Origin: a virus
Virus record (IMG/VR): IMGVR_UViG_3300046336_000166
Span: 1-47,580 of that record
Length of the DNA stretch: 47,580 bases
Strand: one strand, 5' to 3'
Positions within the stretch are counted from its first letter, which is position 1. Each line of letters opens with the position of its first letter. Below, in pieces: positions 1 to 47,580 of this stretch. Both the position numbers and the translations under genes were made by a program. The notes beneath the pieces are model-generated. The model was given only the letters and a program-made list of their open reading frames with translations. It had not been told where the DNA came from and made no database searches.

Positions 1-277
1 AACCAGTGATCCTGATGCGATAGATGGTAGTCCAATACTACCTGTGTCTTCAATATTTGTATTGATAATTAGATCAACCAGTGATCCTGATGCGATAGAT
101 GGTAGTCCAATACTACCTGTGTCTTCAATATTTGTATTGATAATTAGATCAACCAGTGATCCTGATGCGATAGATGGTAGTCCAATACTACCTGTGTCTT
201 CAATATTTGTATTGATAATTAGATCAACCAGTGATCCTGATGCGATAGATGGTAGTCCAATACTACCTGTGTCTTCA
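1..277. repeat. 75-bp in-frame tandem repeat (3 full copies plus 52 bp)
   Basis: The unit starting AACCAGTGATCCTGATGCG recurs at 1, 76, 151 and 226 with no visible base difference; the fourth copy stops matching at 277. The period is 75 bp, exactly 25 codons, so the minus-strand frame stays open across all copies and gives a 25-residue protein repeat starting DTGSIGLPSIASGSL. The array continues past the window edge. Perfect nucleotide identity implies recent expansion or homogenisation, or a collapsed or expanded assembly repeat. Confidence 0.95.
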
Positions 278-7059: not shown

Positions 7060-8202
7060 ATGTCAACTAAGTTCAATGCTAATACATTGTATACAGACCT
7101 TATGGCTCTATGCAGTGAAGGTGATACTTTTTACTTCAAAGATTTTGAATATCTGGGGAGAGTCCTTCGAATTTTCAACTACCGCCTCGCGTCGTGGACA
7201 GAATTCCAGAAGCCAGGTGCACTTGACTGTCGTGGCACGACATATGACATCACAGGCAACCCTCAGTTGATTTCTCTCCCACCTCAAAAATTCTTTAATT
7301 TTGCCGAAGGTGGGGTGGACCACGATGAGTGTGTTATTTCGAGTGCAATGGAAAAACTAGATGGATCACTAATTAGCACAATGTTGGTCAACGGCAATCT
7401 ACATGTTAAGTCTAAGGGTTCGGTGTATTCTGATCAGTCAGGCGACGCAGCATATTACATCTCATACCACGAAGAACTGCGGATCGCGCTAAAAATGCTG
7501 GAGTTATCTGGTTACACAGTCAGTCTGGAGTACACCGCACCACACAATCGAATCGTTGTGGGATATCAAATCCCACAATTGCGAATTTTGGGCATCCGGA
7601 GTTTGGCAACAGGGGAGTATATTCTCCCAGCACAAATAGCACAAGTTACTGGTGTTACTGTCCCGAGTGAGTACCTAGTCTCTCACGGGTTTCCAGAAAT
7701 GATCCCATCAGAATTCAATGAGTATTGCAAGCAATTGCAAGAAGGTGAAGGTTGTGTAGTCGAGATGCACAACCCTACGACAGGGGTACGGTACCTAGTG
7801 AAGTGTAAGGCTGACAAATACGTTCTGTTGCATAAGCAGAAGGATAATGTCAACAGCCCCCGCGCACTATTTGAACTAGCCGCGGTCCAGGGGACGGACG
7901 ATATTCGCAGTATCTTCGGTGATGACAAGTACGTCCAAGATCGAATCACAGCAATGGAGAATCACGTGTTCCCAATTCTTAATTCGATTGAGTCTCAAGT
8001 CAGTAAATTTTATGCTGAAAACAAGCTACTAGAGCGCAAGGACTATGCAATCAAGGCACAGTGCGAACATCCTGACCTGATGCAATTGATGATGAATACC
8101 TACTTGGGACGGATTGTGGACTATCCACAATTTTTAATCAAGCGGTATTCTGAATATAAACCAGCATGGGCAACTGAGACTATTGAGGATTCAGTCGAAT
8201 AA
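7060..8202 (+). CDS. rnlA: T4-type RNA ligase 1
   Basis: 380 residues, close to T4 Rnl1 (374). Motif I MEKLDGS places the adenylated lysine at residue 99, the same number as in T4. Upstream are LDCRGTTYD and KFFNFAE; downstream SLEYTAPHNRIVV (motif IIIa region), GEGCVVE (motif IV) and VKCKADKY (motif V). The enzyme seals 5'-phosphate and 3'-OH RNA ends with ATP; in T4 it repairs tRNA cut by host anticodon nuclease together with a polynucleotide kinase, which I do not see here. A sigma70-type promoter lies 42 bp upstream and a strong inverted repeat follows the gene. Confidence 0.95.
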   Translation: MSTKFNANTLYTDLMALCSEGDTFYFKDFEYLGRVLRIFNYRLASWTEFQKPGALDCRGTTYDITGNPQLISLPPQKFFNFAEGGVDHDECVISSAMEKLDGSLISTMLVNGNLHVKSKGSVYSDQSGDAAYYISYHEELRIALKMLELSGYTVSLEYTAPHNRIVVGYQIPQLRILGIRSLATGEYILPAQIAQVTGVTVPSEYLVSHGFPEMIPSEFNEYCKQLQEGEGCVVEMHNPTTGVRYLVKCKADKYVLLHKQKDNVNSPRALFELAAVQGTDDIRSIFGDDKYVQDRITAMENHVFPILNSIESQVSKFYAENKLLERKDYAIKAQCEHPDLMQLMMNTYLGRIVDYPQFLIKRYSEYKPAWATETIEDSVE

Positions 8203-17011: not shown

Positions 17012-17335
17012 ATTGTGATGAGCTTCCGAAGGGTGCGGTACTCTAATCCGCCTCGGGCTAGAAACTCTGGAAACCTAAATTGGTAAAACTGGCAACAATC
17101 GGGTGCAAATCCCGACGCCTCCACCAAAAACATTATGTCCAGTGCGAGTATAGTGTTTTTGATGGGGGCGATCTAGAATCGACTGACAGAGAATAGAATT
17201 TAATTACAATCCGACACGCACGAACGTCGTTAAATCTGGCAAACAAATAATAACTCACAACGATGAATTATTTGCGTTAGTCGCCTAAACACCGACAACA
17301 CGCTGAGGCTGGTTACCTTATCACCCAACAACTAG
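17012..17335 (+). ncRNA. ssrA: circularly permuted two-piece tmRNA
   Basis: The acceptor piece comes first. The T-arm TCGGG-TGCAAAT-CCCGA (17099-17115), the 3' acceptor strand CGCCTCC (17116-17122), discriminator A and encoded CCA (17124-17126) are clear. After a 37-nt spacer the coding piece begins GGGGGCG (17164-17170), which pairs with CGCCTCC over 7 bp with one G-U, then carries AGAATCGAC like other tmRNAs. A reading frame from about 17238 gives GKQIITHNDELFALVA and TAA at 17286, ending like ssrA degrons; the resume codon is uncertain. A terminator follows. Both outer ends are approximate. Permuted ssrA is known in alphaproteobacteria, some cyanobacteria and some betaproteobacteria. Confidence 0.88.
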
Positions 17336-17364
17336 AAAGAGGCCTCACAAGGGCCTCTTTTTTT
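17336..17364 (+). terminator. intrinsic terminator of the tmRNA gene
   Basis: AAAGAGGCC-tcacaag-GGCCTCTTT with a run of seven T (17358-17364). Perfect 9-bp stem directly after the coding piece of the tmRNA. Confidence 0.93.
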
Positions 17365-29467: not shown

Positions 29468-30694
29468 ATGCAACTAAAATCGTATAAGTACAGAATTTAT
29501 CCAACTAAGACTCAAGAAAAGTATCTTTCTGAAGTCTTCGGTTCTGTGCGTTTTGTGTGGAACCAGTTAGTTGCAAACTTCAACTCATTCTCAAAAGAAG
29601 GGCCTAACCGACCCATGAGTGAGAAAACCTTAAAAGATACACCTGAGTTTAGTTGGTTAAACGATTCGATTTCATACGCACTCCAACAAAAACGTATGGA
29701 TTTTGAAGAAACTAAAAGTCAATTCTTTTCCAAAACTCGTAAGTCTAAACTGGGCAGAATGAAGTTTAAGAAACGTGGAGTTTCTATAGACTCTTTTCGT
29801 ATTCCGGGTCAGAAATTTTCAAATTCTCAAGTAAATTTTGAGACTTCAAGGATTAAAATTCCTAAGATGACGCCAATCAAAATGTCTATAGATAGGAAGT
29901 TTTCCGGCGCTGTAAAGAATGTAACAATTTCTAAAAATAAAGCAAACCAATATTTTGCTTCAATTCTAGTTGAAGAAACTATAGAGTTGAAACAAAATAC
30001 CGGTCGCTCAATCGGTATTGACTTGGGCCTTACACATCTTTGCATCATGAGTAATGGTATGAAGATTGAAAATCCAAGATGGTTTAGAGAAAACCAATCT
30101 AAACTAAAACGAGAACAGCAGCATTTAAGTCGAAAGGTGAATGGCAGTTCTAGGTATGAGAAGCAACGATTAAAAGTTGCAAGGTCTTATCTTAAATTAT
30201 CTAATCAAAGAAACTGGGTTTATCAAAACTTATCCACGTGGTTAGTTAATAATTATGACACCATATGCATGGAAGATTTGAATATCAAAGGGATGGTTAA
30301 GAATCGAAAATTAGCGAAGTCAATTTCTGACGCTTCTTGGTCGACTCTAGTTTCTATGATTGCATATAAGTCGAACTGGTATGGTAGGTCCTTTCAGAAA
30401 ATTGATCGTTGGTATCCATCTTCAAAGACGTGTTCTAATTGCGGTCATAAAGAAACTGATATGGGTTTACACATAAGAGATTGGGTTTGTAGTTCTTGTG
30501 GAACAAATCATGATAGAGACTTAAACGCTGCGGTTAATATTTTAAATAAAGGTCTTGACGATCTTTATGGGTTTTCATCGGAAGAATTGACCGATTACAA
30601 ACGTCGAGAGGAATTAAGACCTTCGGTAGAAATACCAAAGGCATCTTCGTTGAAGCGTTTAGTTAGTTTTATAGATTTTTATAAAACAACATGA
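29468..30694 (+). CDS. tnpB: TnpB (IS200/IS605-type RNA-guided nuclease), 408 aa, no TnpA
   Basis: N-terminal YKYRIYPTKTQEKYL and FVWNQLVANF are the usual OrfB start. RuvC-like catalytic residues are GIDLGL (Asp185), MEDLNI (Glu269) and HDRDLNAA (Asp349/351), with the zinc ribbon C322-x2-C325 and C341-x2-C344. All key residues are present, so the nuclease is probably active. No tnpA gene lies beside it. A short hairpin downstream (30728-30745) may belong to the reRNA/right end. AT-rich, Lys-rich codon use differs from the late genes. Confidence 0.93.
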   Translation: MQLKSYKYRIYPTKTQEKYLSEVFGSVRFVWNQLVANFNSFSKEGPNRPMSEKTLKDTPEFSWLNDSISYALQQKRMDFEETKSQFFSKTRKSKLGRMKFKKRGVSIDSFRIPGQKFSNSQVNFETSRIKIPKMTPIKMSIDRKFSGAVKNVTISKNKANQYFASILVEETIELKQNTGRSIGIDLGLTHLCIMSNGMKIENPRWFRENQSKLKREQQHLSRKVNGSSRYEKQRLKVARSYLKLSNQRNWVYQNLSTWLVNNYDTICMEDLNIKGMVKNRKLAKSISDASWSTLVSMIAYKSNWYGRSFQKIDRWYPSSKTCSNCGHKETDMGLHIRDWVCSSCGTNHDRDLNAAVNILNKGLDDLYGFSSEELTDYKRREELRPSVEIPKASSLKRLVSFIDFYKTT

Positions 30695-32715: not shown

Positions 32716-33273
32716 ATGACAGATTTTGCCATTATCGGTGATAAAAAATATATTAAAATTGCTAGTCCAGATGGCTGGTGTGGTGGTTGTGCCTTTACCG
32801 GTTCATGTTGTACATTTCCAACTGATGATAAAGGCTATTCAGACAGCCAATGTTCGAATCCAAGTGTGATATATAGAGAATACAAGGAACCTGAGCAATC
32901 ATCACTAACAAAAGCTGAAGTAATTGCTGCAATCTATTCAGAAACTCCGATTGAGTGTTCATCGACGTCGAATCCAGTCAATAAACAATCATACTTCACA
33001 CCAGATTTCTTATCAGATCAGTCACTTGGCTTAGATCAAAAAGTTATCACATATCTCCAACACTTCAACCGCGGGCTCATGTGGCGATATAAGAAAGTAC
33101 TGAAAGTTCTTTCAGTAACAACACGTAAATTCCTACAGCGTGACTCAGATGATGCAGTATTAATCAATATCTGGTCGTCACACTGGGAAACTCCACAGGA
33201 AGAAATTCCCATTATAATCAAATCATTTATTCGTTGGTTAGAAGAACCTCAAACAACAACACACGAGATTTAA
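32716..33273 (+). CDS. early protein with Cys-rich head, 185 aa
   Basis: Residues 20-51 hold WCGGCAFTGSC-C and a later C, like the head of 27673-28185, probably a small metal site. LTKAEVIAAIYSETPIECSS then starts a helical domain, and the C-terminal part has IIIKSFIRWLEEPQT. AAGGAAATTAAAATG fixes the start. Two bases separate its stop from the Thg1-like start. No function known. Confidence 0.6.
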   Translation: MTDFAIIGDKKYIKIASPDGWCGGCAFTGSCCTFPTDDKGYSDSQCSNPSVIYREYKEPEQSSLTKAEVIAAIYSETPIECSSTSNPVNKQSYFTPDFLSDQSLGLDQKVITYLQHFNRGLMWRYKKVLKVLSVTTRKFLQRDSDDAVLINIWSSHWETPQEEIPIIIKSFIRWLEEPQTTTHEI

Positions 33274-33275
33274 GT

Positions 33276-34076
33276 ATGTGTTCAAAAGATAATCTTGGCG
33301 ACAAGCTCAAGGACCTAGAGCAAGCAGAAACCTCAAGAAAAGCCATGAAAGGTCTGCCACTAATGGCTAGGCTTGATGGTCGAGGTTTCTCTAAGTTCAC
33401 AAAGGGATTAAAGAGGCCGTACGATGAACGTATGTCTCAACTGATGATCGATACTACAAAGTATCTTGTCGAGAATACTCAGGCATGCGTTGGGTACACA
33501 CAATCTGACGAAATCACACTGTGTTGGTATCACGATTATGAATCTTCTTCGGAGTATATGTTTGATGGCAAGTATCAGAAGCTGGTATCAACACTAGCTG
33601 CAATGGCGACTGCATATTTCAATCATTCATTGAATACATATATTCCTGAGAAATCTAATTTACTGCCTACATTCGACTGCCGAATGTGGCAAGTGCCAAC
33701 ACTGCGGAATGTATATCTGAATTTTTTGTGGCGTGAACAAGACGCCACAAAAAATTCAATCTCAATGGCAGCGCATGAATACTTTTCACAAGCAGAGCTA
33801 CATAAGAAGAATTCTTCTGAGAAACTCGAAATGCTGGAGAGCAAGAGCATCCAATGGGCTGATTACCCAATTTTCTTTAAGCGAGGTACATATGTTCAAC
33901 GCAAAGTTTTTGAAGTTGAACTAGATGAAGTTACTCTGAGTAAAATTCCAGCAGACAAGCGACCATCTAGCCCAGTTTTTAGATCAAAAGTTGTTGAACT
34001 AGATCTACCGATTTTGGTGACATTAGTAAATCCAGAACATGTACTAATTTATGGAGATATACCGGTAACATTATGA
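33276..34076 (+). CDS. Thg1-like 3'-5' RNA polymerase / tRNA(His) guanylyltransferase family
   Basis: 266 residues. MARLDGRGFSKFTKGLKRPY (Asp34 region) and YTQSDEITL (Asp78-Glu79) are the metal-binding catalytic motifs of the Thg1 palm, and FLWREQDATKNSISMAA fits the family's WR..DA..N segment. The family adds nucleotides to RNA 5' ends; eukaryotic members add G-1 to tRNA-His, bacterial/phage-type members (TLPs) repair 5'-truncated tRNAs. No tRNA-His gene is seen here. It overlaps the next gene by ATGA. A perfect 16-bp inverted repeat lies in its coding sequence. Confidence 0.88.
   Translation: MCSKDNLGDKLKDLEQAETSRKAMKGLPLMARLDGRGFSKFTKGLKRPYDERMSQLMIDTTKYLVENTQACVGYTQSDEITLCWYHDYESSSEYMFDGKYQKLVSTLAAMATAYFNHSLNTYIPEKSNLLPTFDCRMWQVPTLRNVYLNFLWREQDATKNSISMAAHEYFSQAELHKKNSSEKLEMLESKSIQWADYPIFFKRGTYVQRKVFEVELDEVTLSKIPADKRPSSPVFRSKVVELDLPILVTLVNPEHVLIYGDIPVTL
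33719..33757. repeat. 16-bp perfect inverted repeat inside the Thg1-like gene
   Basis: GAATTTTTTGTGGCGT (33719-33734), a 7-base loop, and ACGCCACAAAAAATTC (33742-33757). It encodes the conserved segment NFLWREQDATKNS, so it has not disturbed the protein. In mRNA it forms a strong hairpin within the gene. Confidence 0.92.
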
Positions 34077-42443: not shown

Positions 42444-42464
42444 TATTTGAACTAGGAGAACAAT

Positions 42465-42761
42465 ATGAGCATTGATACTGGATGTGGAATTATACTCGGG
42501 TTACCATATAATGAAATGTGTACACTCGTTGGGAAGGGAATTGTTGATGAGATGATCGATAATGATACTCTACAAGTTGGGTCAATTTTCTATGACTCGG
42601 TTCGCGATTGGAATGTTGTCGGTATCTGGATTGAGTACACTGACGGCGGCTGTGAGAAAATTGATAATTTCTCACAGTCGTACCTCGAAGCTGTACAGAA
42701 ATTGCCCAAAGAACTACAGGGTCTAGAACTTGGTACATATCTTACGTGTCATATAACATAA
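42465..42761 (+). CDS. early hypothetical protein, 98 aa
   Basis: MSIDTGCGIILGLPYNEMCT, then SIFYDSVRDWNVVGIWIEYT. Its codons at 42650-42677 contain a near-perfect inverted repeat (CTGTGAGAAA...TTTCTCACAG). TAGGAGAACAAT is a strong ribosome site. No family known. Confidence 0.6.
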   Translation: MSIDTGCGIILGLPYNEMCTLVGKGIVDEMIDNDTLQVGSIFYDSVRDWNVVGIWIEYTDGGCEKIDNFSQSYLEAVQKLPKELQGLELGTYLTCHIT

Positions 42762-42784
42762 ATGAAAATACTAATTAATTTAAC

Positions 42785-42812
42785 AACAGATAATCAATAA
42801 CAGATAATCAAT
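42785..42812. repeat. 14-bp tandem repeat
   Basis: AACAGATAATCAAT occurs twice head to tail, then AACAC. It lies just before the tRNA-like gene, and may be part of its leader or a slippage product. Confidence 0.8.
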
Positions 42813-42824
42813 AACACAACAATC

Positions 42825-42926
42825 GTTCCATTCTTCTAATAGGATAAGATGCTGCCCTCGAGTAGTCGGAAAAAGGTGTCGCCGGCTCGGCAGTGAATGA
42901 GGGTTCGAGTCCCTCACGGAACACCA
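42825..42926 (+). tRNA. tRNA-like gene with enlarged anticodon loop and encoded CCA
   Basis: Acceptor GTTCCAT (42825-42831) pairs with ACGGAAC (42916-42922) in 6 of 7 positions; discriminator A and CCA end at 42926. The T-arm is GAGGG-TTCGAGT-CCCTC. A D-arm TCTT-loop with GG-AAGA follows the acceptor. The anticodon stem CTGCC/GGCAG is followed by a 5-base variable loop, but its loop is 32 bases rather than 7, with an internal AGTCGG/CCGGCT stem. So a 25-base insert sits in the anticodon loop. If CTCGAGT at its start is the true loop, the anticodon would be CGA (Ser), which is a guess. Confidence 0.6.
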
Positions 42927-42948
42927 AATTTACCTTACCATAAAAACT

Positions 42949-44028
42949 ATGACACACTTTATTAAAACTGGCGATACAATTAAGCTTGCTCCAACTGGAT
43001 CAATCGAGGTATCAACCTCACTCCCCGCTGGCACATACGCTGTAAAGCAGAATCCACAGACCCTTGAGTACTACCTACAGACTACGGCGGTGATGGGACT
43101 TCCTCCAAAATTGTACGGCAATTCTCCCCAGAAGCGCGTAGACCGAATCATCAAATCATTCAATGACCGATCTCGTTCTACAGGCGTCCTGTTGTCGGGC
43201 GAAAAGGGATCAGGAAAAACACTACTCACCAAGATGTTGGCTAACAAGCTGATAACTACCGGAACCCCGGTGATTTTGATTAGTGAAGCGCACTGTGGGG
43301 CAGACTTCAACAAATTGATCACAGATATCACCACACCGTGCGTCATTGTATTTGATGAATTTGAGAAGGTGTATGATCGTGATGATCAGGAAGTGCTGCT
43401 GACACTTTTGGATGGTACAGCAACGTGCAAGCACTTGTATGTCCTCACTACTAACTCAGTGATGGTAAGTAATTACCTACTCAATCGCCCAGGTCGTGTG
43501 TACTACGCATTTGAGTATGGGTCACTCGAGCCTGAAGTTGTTGTGGAATATGCTACACAAAATTTAAGTGATCAAACTCAACTGCAAGGCTTACTGGATG
43601 TAGTCAATTTGTTCACAAAATTCAATTTCGACATGTTGCAGGCACTAGTCGAGGAAATGAATCGCTTTGGCGAAAGTGCGGCTGAATCTGTATCTGTGCT
43701 TAACGTATCACCTCGCCACGAAAATGTGGAATACGCTATCGATATCACTGTCGATGGAGCACCACTCCCCAAGATTGTGAATTACTACCCAAAATCACTT
43801 GATTTATCCCCACTGGCTCTAGAAGGTGGGTATTCAATGCAAATTCGAGACAGTAAGGCACTGAAATTGCCAGATGACGGTGATGAAAGCTTTGAGTTGT
43901 CACCCGCTACACTGATGACAATCCAAAACGGTGGTGAGCAAGTATACAAATTTACTCGCGGCAAGAAGGAAGTGCTCATCACACTCAAAAAACAAGTTGG
44001 ATTCAAGTATGCTGGGATGGCGTTTTAA
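42949..44028 (+). CDS. AAA+ ATPase, 359 aa
   Basis: GVLLSGEKGSGKTLLTKMLA (Walker A at about 84-91), CVIVFDEFEKVYD (Walker B), YVLTTNSVM (sensor 1) and NRPGRVYYAFEYG (arginine finger region) form a complete AAA+ core. The N-terminal 75 residues and the C-terminal 120 are specific and beta-rich. Single-domain AAA+ proteins of this type are frequent in T4-like aquatic phages; partner unknown. It lies between the tRNA-like gene and the helicase and may be a protein-remodelling factor. Confidence 0.85.
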   Translation: MTHFIKTGDTIKLAPTGSIEVSTSLPAGTYAVKQNPQTLEYYLQTTAVMGLPPKLYGNSPQKRVDRIIKSFNDRSRSTGVLLSGEKGSGKTLLTKMLANKLITTGTPVILISEAHCGADFNKLITDITTPCVIVFDEFEKVYDRDDQEVLLTLLDGTATCKHLYVLTTNSVMVSNYLLNRPGRVYYAFEYGSLEPEVVVEYATQNLSDQTQLQGLLDVVNLFTKFNFDMLQALVEEMNRFGESAAESVSVLNVSPRHENVEYAIDITVDGAPLPKIVNYYPKSLDLSPLALEGGYSMQIRDSKALKLPDDGDESFELSPATLMTIQNGGEQVYKFTRGKKEVLITLKKQVGFKYAGMAF

Positions 44029-44041
44029 CGTAAAATAAGTG

Positions 44042-44069
44042 TTGACTAATCCAAAATAGTCTGTATAAT
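44042..44069 (+). promoter_or_regulatory. sigma70-type promoter for the UvsW-like helicase
   Basis: TTGACT (44042-44047), 16-bp spacer ending TCTG, TATAAT (44064-44069) with TG two bases upstream (extended -10). AGGGTCC follows; the dyad found in the early modules is absent. Confidence 0.85.
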
Positions 44070-44122
44070 AGGGTCCATGGGTACAGTAAATTACCCGAAA
44101 CGCTACAACAAGGAGTACTATT

Positions 44123-45166
44123 TTGGATCAAGACTCAGTAATCGAAATGTTTGGTAATCGCGAAGCCCGCCATTACCAAATTGCCGCAAAAAACCAAGTC
44201 ATTCAAGCGCTCAAGGAGGGGTTCACGCGCATATGCGTTGTGTTACCGACTGGTGCTGGCAAGTCACTAGCCTCAGGTCTAGTATTTGCGTGCCCTGAAA
44301 TGCGGGAGTTTCTCAAAATTCCAGCCGCTCGACCGATTCGGATTCTGTTTATTGCACATCGCAAACGATTGTTGTCCCAGGCAGAAGAATTGTACGCCCA
44401 AGAAAGTGGTATTATGATTCTTCCTCAATCCAGCGCCAGCCCGATTCCAGATGATCTAGAATTTGATATCGTGTGTATGGATGAGTGTCATCACGAAAGT
44501 ACCCTATCAATCCAACTAAAGTTGGACAAAATCTCTCGTGTACCGTTCATCGGTCTGACGGCAACTCAACTCCGCAATGATTCTACACTTATCAAATTTG
44601 ATAAGTTTGTGGAGCCACTGTCTCGTGAAGATGCTGTCAAGCAAGGTTTCTTGGCTAATAGCAAATTGTTCTCCTTTATTGATAATCCATCCCGAGCGCA
44701 CAGTGAAATGGTACTCGACATCATTAAGTTGAAAGAGAACATTGTTGGTCAAGCGATGGTATTCGTACGAACGAGAGCAGAGGCTGTAAGTCTGACCACG
44801 GCGATCAACAAGCTCGGTAAGACAGCGCGAGCGCTTGTTGATATTAGTGAGAAAGAGCTTAACACTCAGCTGAAAAGTTTCGAGGATAGGGAGTACCAGT
44901 TTGCTGTGTCCTGTAACAAGCTTGGTGAAGGTGTCGATGTTAAGGGCTGCGAATCAGTCATCATCGGCCGCACGCTACAGAGTTATCCACTTTTGAGTCA
45001 AATAATTGGGCGCAGTTCACGGCCAGATTGTGACAGCAATGTATTTGAAATTATTAACCCACTGAGCAACTCCAATCTCGATGCTACAGCACTGATCTCA
45101 CCTGAAGTGCATGAAGTGTGGTACAAGGTACGTGGAGAGTGGCGCAGTAACATTGCTCGAGCATAA
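44123..45166 (+). CDS. uvsW: UvsW-like SF2 DNA helicase (TTG start)
   Basis: Motif I LPTGAGKSL (41-49), motif II MDECHH (119-124), motif III GLTAT (144-148) and motif VI QIIGRSSR are those of SF2 DExH helicases. RHYQIAAKNQVIQAL is the Q-like N-terminal motif. 347 residues, shorter than T4 UvsW (about 500), lacking an extra N-terminal domain. TTG 44123 is chosen because AAGGAG lies 8 bases upstream; the next ATG would cut the N-terminus. Role: branch migration and fork regression in recombination-linked replication. Confidence 0.85.
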   Translation: MDQDSVIEMFGNREARHYQIAAKNQVIQALKEGFTRICVVLPTGAGKSLASGLVFACPEMREFLKIPAARPIRILFIAHRKRLLSQAEELYAQESGIMILPQSSASPIPDDLEFDIVCMDECHHESTLSIQLKLDKISRVPFIGLTATQLRNDSTLIKFDKFVEPLSREDAVKQGFLANSKLFSFIDNPSRAHSEMVLDIIKLKENIVGQAMVFVRTRAEAVSLTTAINKLGKTARALVDISEKELNTQLKSFEDREYQFAVSCNKLGEGVDVKGCESVIIGRTLQSYPLLSQIIGRSSRPDCDSNVFEIINPLSNSNLDATALISPEVHEVWYKVRGEWRSNIARA

Positions 45167-45189
45167 CATAAATTAATAGGAATTATAAA

Positions 45190-46272
45190 ATGTCAGAACG
45201 AAAATTAGTAACAATCCGAGTGATCGATGAGATTACACCAATCCCAGACGCAGATGCAATTGTAGCTGCCCGCATTGGCGGTTGGGAGGTTGTCGTCAAA
45301 AAAGATGAGTTCAAAGTAGGTGATCTGATCGTCTACTTTGAGGTGGATTCCTGGATCCCCACTAAACTTGCGCCATTCTTGTCTAAGGGTAAAGAGCCTC
45401 GACAATACATGGGTATTAAGGGGGAGAAGCTGCGAACAGTGAGGTTGAGAAAACAACTATCACAGGGCTTGATTCTCCCATTAGATTGCTTGTTCTCGGA
45501 AGGTAATACGCTGACCAACAAATTTGCACGTAGTGTATTCACGCTCGCAACACGATTTGATTTCTTCAGGGAATATGTGTTGGGGATGGAATTCAGCAAA
45601 CGCCTGAATGTTAATAAGTGGGAGCTCCAATTGCCAGCGGCGCTGGGCGGAATCGCAAAGGGGAATTTTCCATCATTCTTGCACCGTAGCGATCAAGAGC
45701 GCTGCCAAAACTTGAGTAGAGCAATTACTGACAACGCAGGTCAGGAGTTCGAGGTATCGATTAAACTTGATGGCTCCTCACTGACAGTATTTGTAAAAGA
45801 TGGAGTGCCTGGGGTGTGCTCTCGTAATTTGGAGTTACTCGAGACTGCAGACAATGCATTCTGGAAGTGCGCTCGTCAGAATCAATTGATTGAGGCAATT
45901 CAGTCGACTGGCCGCAATTTAGCACTACAATCTGAGATGATTGGTATGGGCATTCAAGGTAACCAGGAAAAGATCACAGGAATTGATTCTTATGTATTTG
46001 ATATCTTTGATATTGATACTGGGAAGTACTTACCACCTGCAGAGCGCACTGCAATCATCAATCAGATAACCGCCTTGGGGTTCAATGGGGTGAAACAGGT
46101 TCCTATTCTCGGAACATTCACTCTGAACCACTCGATTCCAGATTTGCTTGAGATGGCTGATGGACCTTCACTGACTGCTAAGCAACGCGAAGGTTTGGTG
46201 TGGAAGCGTCTCGATGGCCAATTCTCATTCAAAGCGATCTCTAACAAATGGTTGCTGAAAAATGACGTATAA
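45190..46272 (+). CDS. RNA ligase of the DRB0094/TIGR02306 type
   Basis: 360 residues. An N-terminal OB-like domain (ITPIPDADAIVAARIGGWEV, KVGDLIVYFEVDSWIP) precedes the ligase core with motif I SIKLDGSSLT (Lys192), GVCSRNLEL, LALQSEMIG (motif III region), VFDIFD, EGLVWKR (motif IV) and FSFKAIS (motif V). This layout fits the Deinococcus-type RNA ligases, which seal nicks in RNA or RNA/DNA duplexes. It is the second clear RNA ligase in the window, beside RNA ligase 1. AGGAATTATAAA precedes the ATG. Confidence 0.9.
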   Translation: MSERKLVTIRVIDEITPIPDADAIVAARIGGWEVVVKKDEFKVGDLIVYFEVDSWIPTKLAPFLSKGKEPRQYMGIKGEKLRTVRLRKQLSQGLILPLDCLFSEGNTLTNKFARSVFTLATRFDFFREYVLGMEFSKRLNVNKWELQLPAALGGIAKGNFPSFLHRSDQERCQNLSRAITDNAGQEFEVSIKLDGSSLTVFVKDGVPGVCSRNLELLETADNAFWKCARQNQLIEAIQSTGRNLALQSEMIGMGIQGNQEKITGIDSYVFDIFDIDTGKYLPPAERTAIINQITALGFNGVKQVPILGTFTLNHSIPDLLEMADGPSLTAKQREGLVWKRLDGQFSFKAISNKWLLKNDV

Positions 46273-46492
46273 ATCCACAATCACTTCCGTTGCAGTATCG
46301 TACCAAGACGAATCGCCGATTTTTGGTGAGAACACAATCAAATTGGCGCTTGATGATGAAGCAGGAGGTGTGTTCCTCGTGCTTAGCGATCTAAACGACA
46401 ACACAATCAAAATTGATCACCAACAGTGGATCGAGTTGGAGGTGGCGGCCAAAATATTGATGACGGCTAGTAATATACAAAGCTTTACATAA
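46262..46492 (+). CDS. hypothetical protein, 76 aa
   Basis: KSTITSVAVSYQDESPIFGE, then GVFLVLSDLNDNTIKIDHQQ and a helix. Overlaps the ligase gene end by 11 bases. Beta-sandwich-like pattern; no family known. Confidence 0.58.
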   Translation: MTYKSTITSVAVSYQDESPIFGENTIKLALDDEAGGVFLVLSDLNDNTIKIDHQQWIELEVAAKILMTASNIQSFT

Positions 46493-46539
46493 ACCGTTCC
46501 TGCTGATCCATTTCCCTTTTCAGGATCGGTAGTGCCATT

Positions 46540-46577
46540 GGGGACTTACTCACTCCCGCGAATGGCACCCCACTAGT
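46540..46577 (+). other. hairpin in the 149-bp gap before 46642
   Basis: GTGCCATT and AATGGCAC form an 8-bp stem over a 21-base loop. No T-run follows, so it is a doubtful terminator. It lies upstream of the late promoter at 46608. Nothing else is recognised in this gap. Confidence 0.4.
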
Positions 46578-46607
46578 TAATTTGAAACCACTTTGCGCAG
46601 CCTCAGG

Positions 46608-46614
46608 CTAAATA
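46608..46614 (+). promoter_or_regulatory. late promoter CTAAATA
   Basis: GGCTAAATATACTG resembles the element GGCTAAATACTG at 8223. It lies 27 bp before ATG 46642. Confidence 0.55.
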
Positions 46615-46641
46615 TACTGAACACAATTAAAACACTCGCAC

Positions 46642-47202
46642 ATGTACACAATTAAAACAGCCCAAGCACTCCTTAATGATGTTGCTGATAAAAACTCCAT
46701 CACACTTGCACAGTCTCCTGACTTCGGCGTGGTGGTTCCAAAAGAAGAAGCTGAAGCAGCCCGTCTCGATAAATTTTTGAGTGATCTAGTGGCCCAAGGC
46801 TTTGTGAAAAAACAGCCAAATGAGTCTCGGCCGTTGGTCACGTACACAAAGGATAACCTGGTTGTGTTGGTTCGCGAACCAACAGGTGCAAAATACCGCT
46901 GCATCACTGGCGTCGATATCACAGTCGATGGCAAGTATACAGCGATGGCTGAAGGTACAGGCTTTATGGCTTCAATTATCCGGTCACTGAATGAGTCGCC
47001 AAAGGTTTGGAACCCAGCTCAAATTGAAAATCATTTAGATAAAATTGAGACCTTACTGTTTAACCGAGATCTGATGGATTGGTGTAGCGATAACCTGTAT
47101 GGCGATTCGACGAAGCTAGACAAGGTGCGAACTGTGTTTGGTGAGTTGCGGACGGCCGTCGAAGTGGCCATTGATCCCACTAGAGCCTCAGAGTTGAAAT
47201 AA
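46642..47202 (+). CDS. late hypothetical protein, 186 aa
   Basis: MYTIKTAQALLNDVADKNSI, then VVPKEEAEAARLDKFLSDLV and a beta-rich core (LVTYTKDNLVVLVREPTGAK). Late-promoter control suggests a virion or assembly role. No family recognised. Confidence 0.62.
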   Translation: MYTIKTAQALLNDVADKNSITLAQSPDFGVVVPKEEAEAARLDKFLSDLVAQGFVKKQPNESRPLVTYTKDNLVVLVREPTGAKYRCITGVDITVDGKYTAMAEGTGFMASIIRSLNESPKVWNPAQIENHLDKIETLLFNRDLMDWCSDNLYGDSTKLDKVRTVFGELRTAVEVAIDPTRASELK

Positions 47203-47216
47203 TCCACTTCTCCCTG

Positions 47217-47276
47217 TTGACTTACCCTAATTAATAGGGTACAATAACCCCATCTGTTAACGCAAATGGGGTTTTT
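47217..47276 (+). promoter_or_regulatory. sigma70-type promoter followed by hairpin and T-run
   Basis: TTGACT (47217-47222), 17-bp spacer ending AATAGGG, TACAAT (47240-47245). At the start of the transcript AACCCCAT (47246-47253) pairs with ATGGGGTT (47266-47273), followed by TTT. GGGG inside the second arm is the only ribosome-site-like sequence before ATG 47279. So the leader may act as an attenuator or occlude the start. Confidence 0.7.
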
Positions 47277-47278
47277 AC

Positions 47279-47557
47279 ATGAAAGTATTCAAATTTGATC
47301 CAACTACTGGCCTGCAGGGTGAACAAGTAGATGAAATCCGTATTCCTCGATTCCTGGCCAACCCTAACATGGCGAGTTGCATCATGCCTGCACGTAACTC
47401 GTTCGATGATGAGTGGTCGGTATCTACGATTGCACGTGATGCAGATAATAACTTGGTGTTGTACCCTTTCCCAGTGTGCTTTTGTCTCGGGCAGATGAAA
47501 GCAGGTGAGGGTGATTGGTTCTGGGATTGGAAGATCCTGTTGACTTCTGAGAAATAA
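47279..47557 (+). CDS. early hypothetical protein, 92 aa
   Basis: MKVFKFDPTTGLQGEQVDEI, then WSVSTIARDADNNLVLYPFP and a Trp-rich end GEGDWFWDWKILLT. Strong upstream promoter with a hairpin leader. A further promoter for the next gene overlaps its 3' end. No family known. Confidence 0.65.
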   Translation: MKVFKFDPTTGLQGEQVDEIRIPRFLANPNMASCIMPARNSFDDEWSVSTIARDADNNLVLYPFPVCFCLGQMKAGEGDWFWDWKILLTSEK

Positions 47558-47568
47558 TAGGGTACAAT
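47540..47568 (+). promoter_or_regulatory. sigma70-type promoter for a gene beyond the window
   Basis: TTGACT (47540-47545), 17-bp spacer ending AATAGGG, TACAAT (47563-47568). ATG at 47576 starts the next gene, with only five bases in the window. The element is nearly a copy of the 47217 promoter. Confidence 0.8.
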
Positions 47569-47580
47569 AAACACTATGCA

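What the first reader, a model, noticed from the sequence alone, without database searches (positions are those of the whole stretch)
42825..42926. tRNA with a 25-base insert in the anticodon loop
Acceptor, D-arm, anticodon stem, variable loop, T-arm and CCA are all placeable, but the anticodon loop is 32 bases and holds its own 6-bp stem. Options: a very short intron, a decoy for anticodon nucleases, a broken tRNA, or a tRNA-like element with another role. A phage with two RNA ligases could remove or repair such an insert.
Basis: partly seen in the sequence, partly recalled or inferred. Interest (0 to 1): 0.55.

Follow-up and report, generated by a model that had tools for sequence, protein, structure and literature searches.

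The report
Phage tRNA that lost its anticodon
A bacterial virus carries what looks like a glutamate tRNA gene whose message-reading triplet has been replaced by about 29 unrelated letters, so it probably can no longer take part in normal protein synthesis; it may be a broken leftover or an RNA with some other job.

Summary
42825-42926 is a genuine class I tRNA body: acceptor, D arm, 5-bp anticodon stem, 5-nt variable loop, T arm and encoded CCA, with a 32-nt anticodon loop. A tRNA-Glu covariance model matches it end to end (50.1 bits, E 1e-12). By sequence it is a tRNA-Glu whose anticodon and base 37 were replaced by ~29 nt. The insert's own 6-bp stem is real but not above chance (4335 of 5000 composition-matched shuffles fold as well). 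No excision leaving a 7-nt loop restores a Glu anticodon, so the intron idea is weak; an anticodon-nuclease decoy is unlikely because the anticodon is gone. In the closest phage found, three ORFs occupy this spot. No second copy of the insert turned up. Best reading: a recently acquired, non-decoding tRNA-Glu relic; a functional non-decoding RNA is not excluded. On the way I found a separate, covarying family of 113-131 nt phage tRNAs with a conserved anticodon-loop insert, including KVP40 'tRNA-Pseudo-3/4/5'; the window element fails that family's test.

The parts
42825..42926 (+). tRNA-Glu-derived tRNA-like gene with enlarged anticodon loop
   Evidence: ARAGORN with introns; tRNA-Glu covariance model R3 50.1 bits, model positions 1-75
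42825..42831 (+). acceptor stem, 5' strand GTTCCAT
   Evidence: sequence; 6 of 7 pairs with 42916-42922
42834..42850 (+). D arm, A14/A15/G18/G19/A21 present, U10.U25 mismatch
   Evidence: sequence; mismatch count
42852..42856 (+). anticodon stem 5' strand CTGCC
   Evidence: sequence; pairs with 42889-42893
42857..42888 (+). 32-nt anticodon loop; C32 U33 kept at the start and a C at the end
   Evidence: sequence; ARAGORN insert of 25
42859..42887 (+). 29 nt standing where tRNA-Glu has anticodon UUC and base 37 (net +25)
   Evidence: comparison with 35 aligned phage tRNA-Glu; inference
42864..42887 (+). hairpin AGUCGG-12 nt-CCGGCU inside the insert; not above chance
   Evidence: fold; shuffles
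42889..42893 (+). anticodon stem 3' strand GGCAG
   Evidence: sequence
42894..42898 (+). variable loop TGAAT
   Evidence: sequence
42899..42915 (+). T arm GAGGG-TTCGAGT-CCCTC
   Evidence: sequence; Rfam tRNA aligns this part
42916..42926 (+). acceptor 3' strand, discriminator A and encoded CCA
   Evidence: sequence
42783..42933 (+). 151-nt stretch that stands in place of 1,096 nt in the closest phage found (L002 1081-2176)
   Evidence: alignment of both flanks
42786..42813 (+). two tandem copies of ACAGATAATCAATA; promoter-like TTAACA-17-GATAAT at 42780-42808, not above chance
42949..44028 (+). AAA ATPase gene, starts 22 nt after the CCA
   Evidence: Pfam AAA 4.6e-10

Best explanation
It is a phage tRNA-Glu gene that has lost its anticodon. 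The acceptor, D, anticodon-stem and T parts of a tRNA-Glu are kept and still fold, but anticodon 34-36 and base 37 were replaced by about 29 nt (net +25). If transcribed, it should fold like a tRNA and could be trimmed by host RNase P and end in its encoded CCA (inferred), but it should neither decode nor be a normal substrate for glutamyl-tRNA synthetase, which reads the anticodon (recalled). The likeliest fate is a young, non-decoding relic: the gene came into this phage lineage by a swap that removed about 1.1 kb beside the ATPase gene, and it has not yet decayed. Shown: anatomy, Glu resemblance, lack of a Glu anticodon, the swap relative to L002. Inferred: order of events, transcription, processing, lack of function.
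For: Real tRNA body. Glu origin: leave-out classifier on the two halves ranks Glu first (22.0; next Thr 19.2); on 250 test tRNAs it was right for 206, and 14 of 15 Glu calls were right. In a first ranking 10 of the best 12 neighbours among 955 were tRNA-Glu. 2 of 2 bacterial hits to GTTCCATTCNTCTA plus a T arm are ordinary tRNA-Glu(UUC). No Glu anticodon results from any single excision leaving 7 nt: the choices with U33 give CGA, CGC or GGC (read by hand). CGA as Ser is implausible: 60 of 60 phage tRNA-Ser are 84-95 nt long, and A36 is followed by G37 in only 15 of 227. Insert unique: no match in 50 relative records, 80 loci or pattern scans. Insert structure at chance. Replacement relative to L002.
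Against: The body is not visibly decayed: 2 stem mismatches, and 162 of 848 phage tRNAs have 2 or more. The anticodon stem is a perfect 5 bp, so a newly shaped functional RNA fits as well. The 3' half alone looks no more Glu than Thr, Leu, Pro or Asp, and the single closest tRNA in the first ranking is an Asp. The 5-nt variable loop and U13-A22 depart from the usual tRNA-Glu. With filters off on a 701-base stretch, R3 gave a shorter match (27.2 bits, model 4-68). A related anatomy is conserved in other giant phages, so inserts in anticodon loops are not always junk.
Confidence: 0.55

Rival explanations
1. A functional non-decoding tRNA-like RNA: the tRNA-Glu body is kept as bait or mimic for something that recognises the body or the CCA end (a tail-cutting or acceptor-modifying defence enzyme, a synthetase, a ribosome-rescue factor), and loss of the anticodon keeps it out of translation.
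For: Body intact; anticodon stem perfect; sits alone in its own intergenic slot; RNA genes (permuted tmRNA) sit in the same slot in 6 of 42 relatives (by hand); the phage has an RNA-repair kit (Rnl1-like, RNA ligase, Thg1). A coding-region-less tmRNA of phage DS6A is reported to inhibit host tmRNA (passage in PMC11915505).
Against: One copy only; insert not conserved, not more structured than chance; no expression data; promoter-like site is at chance level.
Confidence: 0.3
2. A tRNA gene with a 25-nt intron at about 37/38 that is cut out and sealed by the phage ligases.
For: ARAGORN places a 25-nt intron at or next to the canonical position; two RNA ligases; C32, U33 and a purine at 37 remain.
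Against: Spliced product would read CGA with G37 and no long variable arm, not a Ser tRNA and not Glu; too short for group I; no bulge-helix-bulge: the alternative fold has both bulges on one strand; no splicing endonuclease in 40 ORFs scanned.
Confidence: 0.04
3. A decoy for host anticodon nucleases.
For: Such nucleases exist; overexpressed RloC prefers tRNA-Glu in E. coli (passage in PMC2610378); phage tRNAs with altered anticodon loops are argued to escape nucleases (passages in PMC10264068).
Against: The anticodon and its 7-nt loop, the part such enzymes read, are missing.
Confidence: 0.05
4. An assembly or chimera artefact in a metagenome contig, or a chance tRNA look-alike.
For: One record only; reads were not available.
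Against: Chance is excluded in practice (0 in 100 randomised windows; E 1.1e-12). The insert has no second copy in the window or loci that could have been joined in by error.
Confidence: 0.05

Closest known systems
Phage tRNA-Glu(UUC) genes (e.g. L179 8740-8814, L128, L133, KVP40 tRNA-Glu-1)
   Same: Acceptor start GTTCCATTC (identical to L179), U11-A24, GCTGCCCT before the anticodon, encoded CCA
   Different: Window element has no UUC or CUC anticodon, 25 nt extra in the loop, a U10.U25 mismatch and a 5-nt variable loop
KVP40 tRNA-Pseudo-3, -4, -5 and the 113-131 nt phage tRNA family with a conserved anticodon-loop insert (model R2)
   Same: Intact tRNA body, anticodon stem kept, 45-49 nt insert in the anticodon loop (Pseudo-5, Pseudo-4) with its own hairpin
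   Different: Family insert has the conserved core CCTGACAAGG plus C[A/T]GCA; window element lacks it and scores 31.9 bits with the insert skipped against 86 or more for members
Coding-region-less tmRNA of mycobacteriophage DS6A (read only as a passage)
   Same: A non-decoding phage tRNA-like RNA
   Different: tmRNA-derived and able to block host tmRNA; the window element is tRNA-Glu-derived, function untested
Archaeal and eukaryotic tRNA introns at 37/38; bacterial group I tRNA introns (passages)
   Same: Extra sequence in the anticodon loop near 37/38; introns of 12-25 nt are described in the archaeal section
   Different: No bulge-helix-bulge, no group I core, splicing would not restore Glu decoding

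Membership tests
Phage-encoded tRNA (class I body) | Acceptor, D, anticodon and T stems with conserved tertiary bases and CCA | tested here: met
Phage-encoded tRNA (decoding) | 7-nt anticodon loop with a readable anticodon | tested here: not met
   32-nt loop; no other 5-bp arm with a 7-nt loop and all 5 pairs
tRNA-Glu | Isotype-specific body | tested here: met
   (Glu first; 14 of 15 Glu calls right in tests); the 3' half alone does not decide
tRNA-Glu | Anticodon UUC or CUC | tested here: not met
   By hand: not in place, and not produced by any excision leaving a 7-nt loop
Protein-spliced tRNA intron | Bulge-helix-bulge at the exon borders | tested here: not met
   best folds have one-sided bulges
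Protein-spliced tRNA intron | Splicing endonuclease available | tested here: inconclusive
   None in 40 window ORFs; record is a fragment
Group I intron | Catalytic core of 200 nt or more (recalled) | tested here: not met
   Insert is 25 nt net; no Rfam intron hit
Conserved anticodon-loop-insert tRNA family (R2; KVP40 Pseudo-3/4/5) | Core hairpin CCTGACAAGG and C[A/T]GCA; R2 score of members | tested here: not met
   31.9 bits with insert skipped; members score 86.5-121.1 and other listed matches 55.1 or less
Permuted tmRNA remnant | T arm and CCA before the 5' acceptor strand | tested here: not met
   Order is that of an ordinary tRNA; the window's permuted tmRNA is elsewhere, 17068-17288
Functional non-decoding RNA | Expression, stability, phenotype | not testable with these tools
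   Needs RNA and a cultured phage

The most novel reading that the evidence does not exclude
The element is a working, non-decoding tRNA-Glu mimic: a phage took a tRNA-Glu, removed the anticodon so that it cannot enter translation, and keeps the folded CCA-ended body as a sponge for a host factor that recognises tRNA bodies or tails. It would then be a second, independent example of what the conserved anticodon-loop-insert tRNAs of KVP40-like and other giant phages appear to be.
Probability: 0.2. Interest if true: 0.75.

Novelty: new variant of a known kind. Interest (0 to 1): 0.4.

Why it matters
Alone, a single tRNA with its anticodon replaced is most likely a relic, and shows how a standard tRNA finder can miss such genes. 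It matters more as a pointer: looking for relatives exposed a family of phage tRNAs with a conserved, covarying insert in the anticodon loop, some of which are filed as tRNA pseudogenes in the KVP40 record. If giant phages keep tRNA bodies that cannot decode, the old question of why phages carry tRNAs gains a class with a different answer, testable in KVP40 or its relatives.

Tried and rejected
Type II (long variable arm) reading: GCCG-GCT-CGGC could be a variable-arm hairpin, but no 5-bp arm with a 7-nt loop pairs fully in the rest. Ser(CGA) by splicing: rejected. Origin from the permuted tmRNA that sits in the same slot in some relatives: wrong order of parts. Membership in the R2 family: rejected by score. 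Antisense or Shine-Dalgarno role of the 12-nt apical loop: considered by eye only, dropped. Rfam at loose thresholds gave only chance hits at the element apart from the tRNA T arm. BLAST of the element in phages and of its surroundings in plasmids found only T-arm/acceptor matches or unrelated short matches. Literature searches showed no report of this element or of the R2 family; the library lacks most subscription journals and I did not open the KVP40 genome paper. Papers of which I saw passages: PMC4090602, PMC2610378, PMC10264068, PMC5852040, PMC9004378, PMC11915505, PMC1524935; all others only as search listings.

Full report
What is there. The window is a 47,580-base virus record. At 42825-42926 lies a tRNA body with a 32-nt anticodon loop. 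The default tRNA finder reports none in the window. With introns allowed it reports one gene, exactly these coordinates, with a 25-nt insert. The same setting gave 0 hits in 100 Markov-shuffled windows, 4.76 Mb. Rfam's general tRNA model recognises only the T arm, 13.3 bits. A tRNA-Glu model (R3) built from 35 phage tRNA-Glu matches the element over all 75 positions with 50.1 bits, E 1.1e-12, in a search of 15 sources. On a 701-base stretch with filters off it gave a shorter match, 27.2 bits, model positions 4-68.

Condition of the body. Two of 21 stem pairs are not standard (A6.C67, U10.U25). Of 848 phage tRNAs with CCA, 321 have none, 365 one, 90 two and 72 more. So the body is ordinary for a phage tRNA. 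The tertiary-contact bases U8-A14, A15-U48, G18-U55, G19-C56 and U54-A58 are all present (read; the contacts are recalled knowledge).

Which tRNA it was. Scores of the two halves, without anticodon, put Glu first (22.0, then Thr 19.2, Asp 18.4); the 5' half alone is clearer (Glu 12.0, next 7.6), while the 3' half alone puts Thr first and Glu fifth. In tests on 250 of 944 tRNAs the method was right for 206, and 14 of its 15 Glu calls were right. In an earlier ranking of 955 tRNAs, 10 of the best 12 were Glu, although the very best was an Asp. A scan of the genome collection (84,980 species) for GTTCCATTCNTCTA plus a T arm gave two places, both ordinary tRNA-Glu(UUC).

What replaced the anticodon. 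tRNA-Glu loops here mostly read C32 U33 UUC A37 then A or C. In the element C32 and U33 remain, then come 29 nt, then a C, then the 3' stem. No UUC or CUC stands where an anticodon should. Cutting out any contiguous stretch so that 7 nt remain, with U33 kept, gives CGA, CGC or GGC (by hand). ARAGORN's CGA would be serine, but 60 of 60 phage tRNA-Ser here are 84-95 nt long, and after A36 base 37 is A in 211 of 227 tRNAs, G in 15. The stem inside the insert (AGUCGG/CCGGCU) is real but expected from composition: 2815 of 5000 shuffled loops fold as well alone and 4335 of 5000 with the anticodon stem fixed. Random 32-mers of the window reach it in 633 of 5000, fewer because the loop is GC-rich.

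Relatives. A one-sequence model (R1) finds no second element with the insert: in 50 of the 80 relative records, none of the listed matches is longer than 92 nt; in 80 relative loci plus the window, the best match other than the element itself is an ordinary 77-nt tRNA at 42.4 bits. Pattern scans of viral contigs (42, 43, 12, 6 and 11 places) and of genomes gave no copy; hits were printed, while those were screened only by a filter. These patterns need exact matches and would miss diverged copies, and the tools state that records very near the window's own may be left out. BLAST against 50,697 phage records found only short matches, the listed ones covering at most 31% of the element, mostly at the T arm and acceptor.

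How it got there. The closest relative found is L002 (ATPase 90% identical; the same contig carries the 98-aa neighbour). Window 42462-42782 aligns with L002 764-1080 and window 42934-46940 with L002 2177-6179 (76.9% and 78.0%). Between them the window has 151 nt with the element, and L002 has 1,096 nt with three ORFs (67, 103 and 241 aa frames). The window keeps the first bases of the 67-aa gene just before the element. So one lineage swapped this stretch; the leftover gene start suggests it was the window's. Of 42 relative records tested for permuted tmRNA, 6 (L027, L028, L040, L044, L045, L061) carry one directly upstream of the same ATPase gene (positions computed by hand); in the window the permuted tmRNA is far away, at 17068-17288.

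Context. The window encodes a T4 Rnl1-like ligase (7060-8202), a second RNA ligase (45190-46272) and a Thg1-like protein (33234-34076), so RNA repair is plausible for this phage. Nothing ties these enzymes to the element. RloC, an anticodon nuclease, preferred tRNA-Glu when overexpressed in E. coli (passage, PMC2610378), but the element lacks the part such enzymes cut.

A second, conserved kind of insert. Looking for relatives I met 113-131 nt phage tRNAs with a different insert: a hairpin around CCTGACAAGG followed by C[A/T]GCA. Twenty distinct members were aligned. Of 26 pairs, 20 show changes on both sides; 118 cells change on both sides against 38.9 in shuffles; 88.0% of cells pair against 63.9% in shuffles. 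The anticodon stem is the weakest helix (64.9% paired). KVP40 supplies four of the twenty: tRNA-Pseudo-3, -4, -5 and one place without annotation. Rfam's tRNA model fits Pseudo-4 and Pseudo-5 over all 71 positions with 49 and 45 nt skipped in the anticodon loop, 55.5 and 51.9 bits. Pseudo-4 has matches in 87 phage records (49 cover at least 80% of it) and Pseudo-5 in 38 (24 cover at least 80%). In 49 records, many chosen because they had already matched, R2 members score 86.5-121.1 in 15 records and all other listed matches 55.1 or less. The window element gets 31.9 bits with its insert skipped: same general anatomy, not a member.

Verdict. The element is a tRNA-Glu body without an anticodon. 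I judge a young relic most likely (0.55), a functional non-decoding RNA next (0.3), and intron, anticodon-nuclease decoy and artefact unlikely.

Noticed in passing
L258:1495-1620, 1736-1851, 1859-1982 and L259:19302-19417 (KVP40); also L020, L029, L034, L128, L129, L131, L134, L139, L140, L149, L151, L152, L155, L157, L158, L159: Covarying family of 113-131 nt phage tRNAs with a conserved anticodon-loop insert (CCTGACAAGG hairpin, C[A/T]GCA); three KVP40 members are annotated as tRNA pseudogenes, one not at all.
   Followed up: partly
window 17045-17363: Permuted tmRNA (Rfam RF04321 73.3 bits) missed by ARAGORN; 24 of 43 records of this phage group, window included, have one over the cut-off.
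   Followed up: partly
L014:661-752, L020:10796-10887, L040:11303-11397, L029:8471-8569, L102:2412-2506: Long tRNA-Ile(UAU)-like genes, 92-99 nt, several with a long variable arm, recurring in different phages.
   Followed up: no
L003:4452-4525, L004:5263-5336, L029:4320-4393, L042:4144-4217: CTA-anticodon (amber suppressor, called tRNA-Pyl) tRNAs directly after the same ATPase gene in relatives; stop-codon recoding was not checked.
   Followed up: no
window 47213-47580: 368 bp are 99.2% identical to L002 6412-6779 while the neighbouring 4 kb are 78% identical; a weak sar-like antisense RNA match starts at 47212 (29.4 bits, gathering 43). Looks like a recent exchange.
   Followed up: no
window 33234-34076: Thg1-like protein (tRNAHis guanylyltransferase family, Pfam 9.9e-31) in a phage that also has two RNA ligases.
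   Followed up: no
window 29468-30694: TnpB/IS605 OrfB-like protein with a Cas12f1-like domain (Pfam 2.5e-25).
   Followed up: no
window 13-276: Low-threshold tRNA calls repeat every 75 bp at the left end, hinting at a tandem repeat.
   Followed up: no
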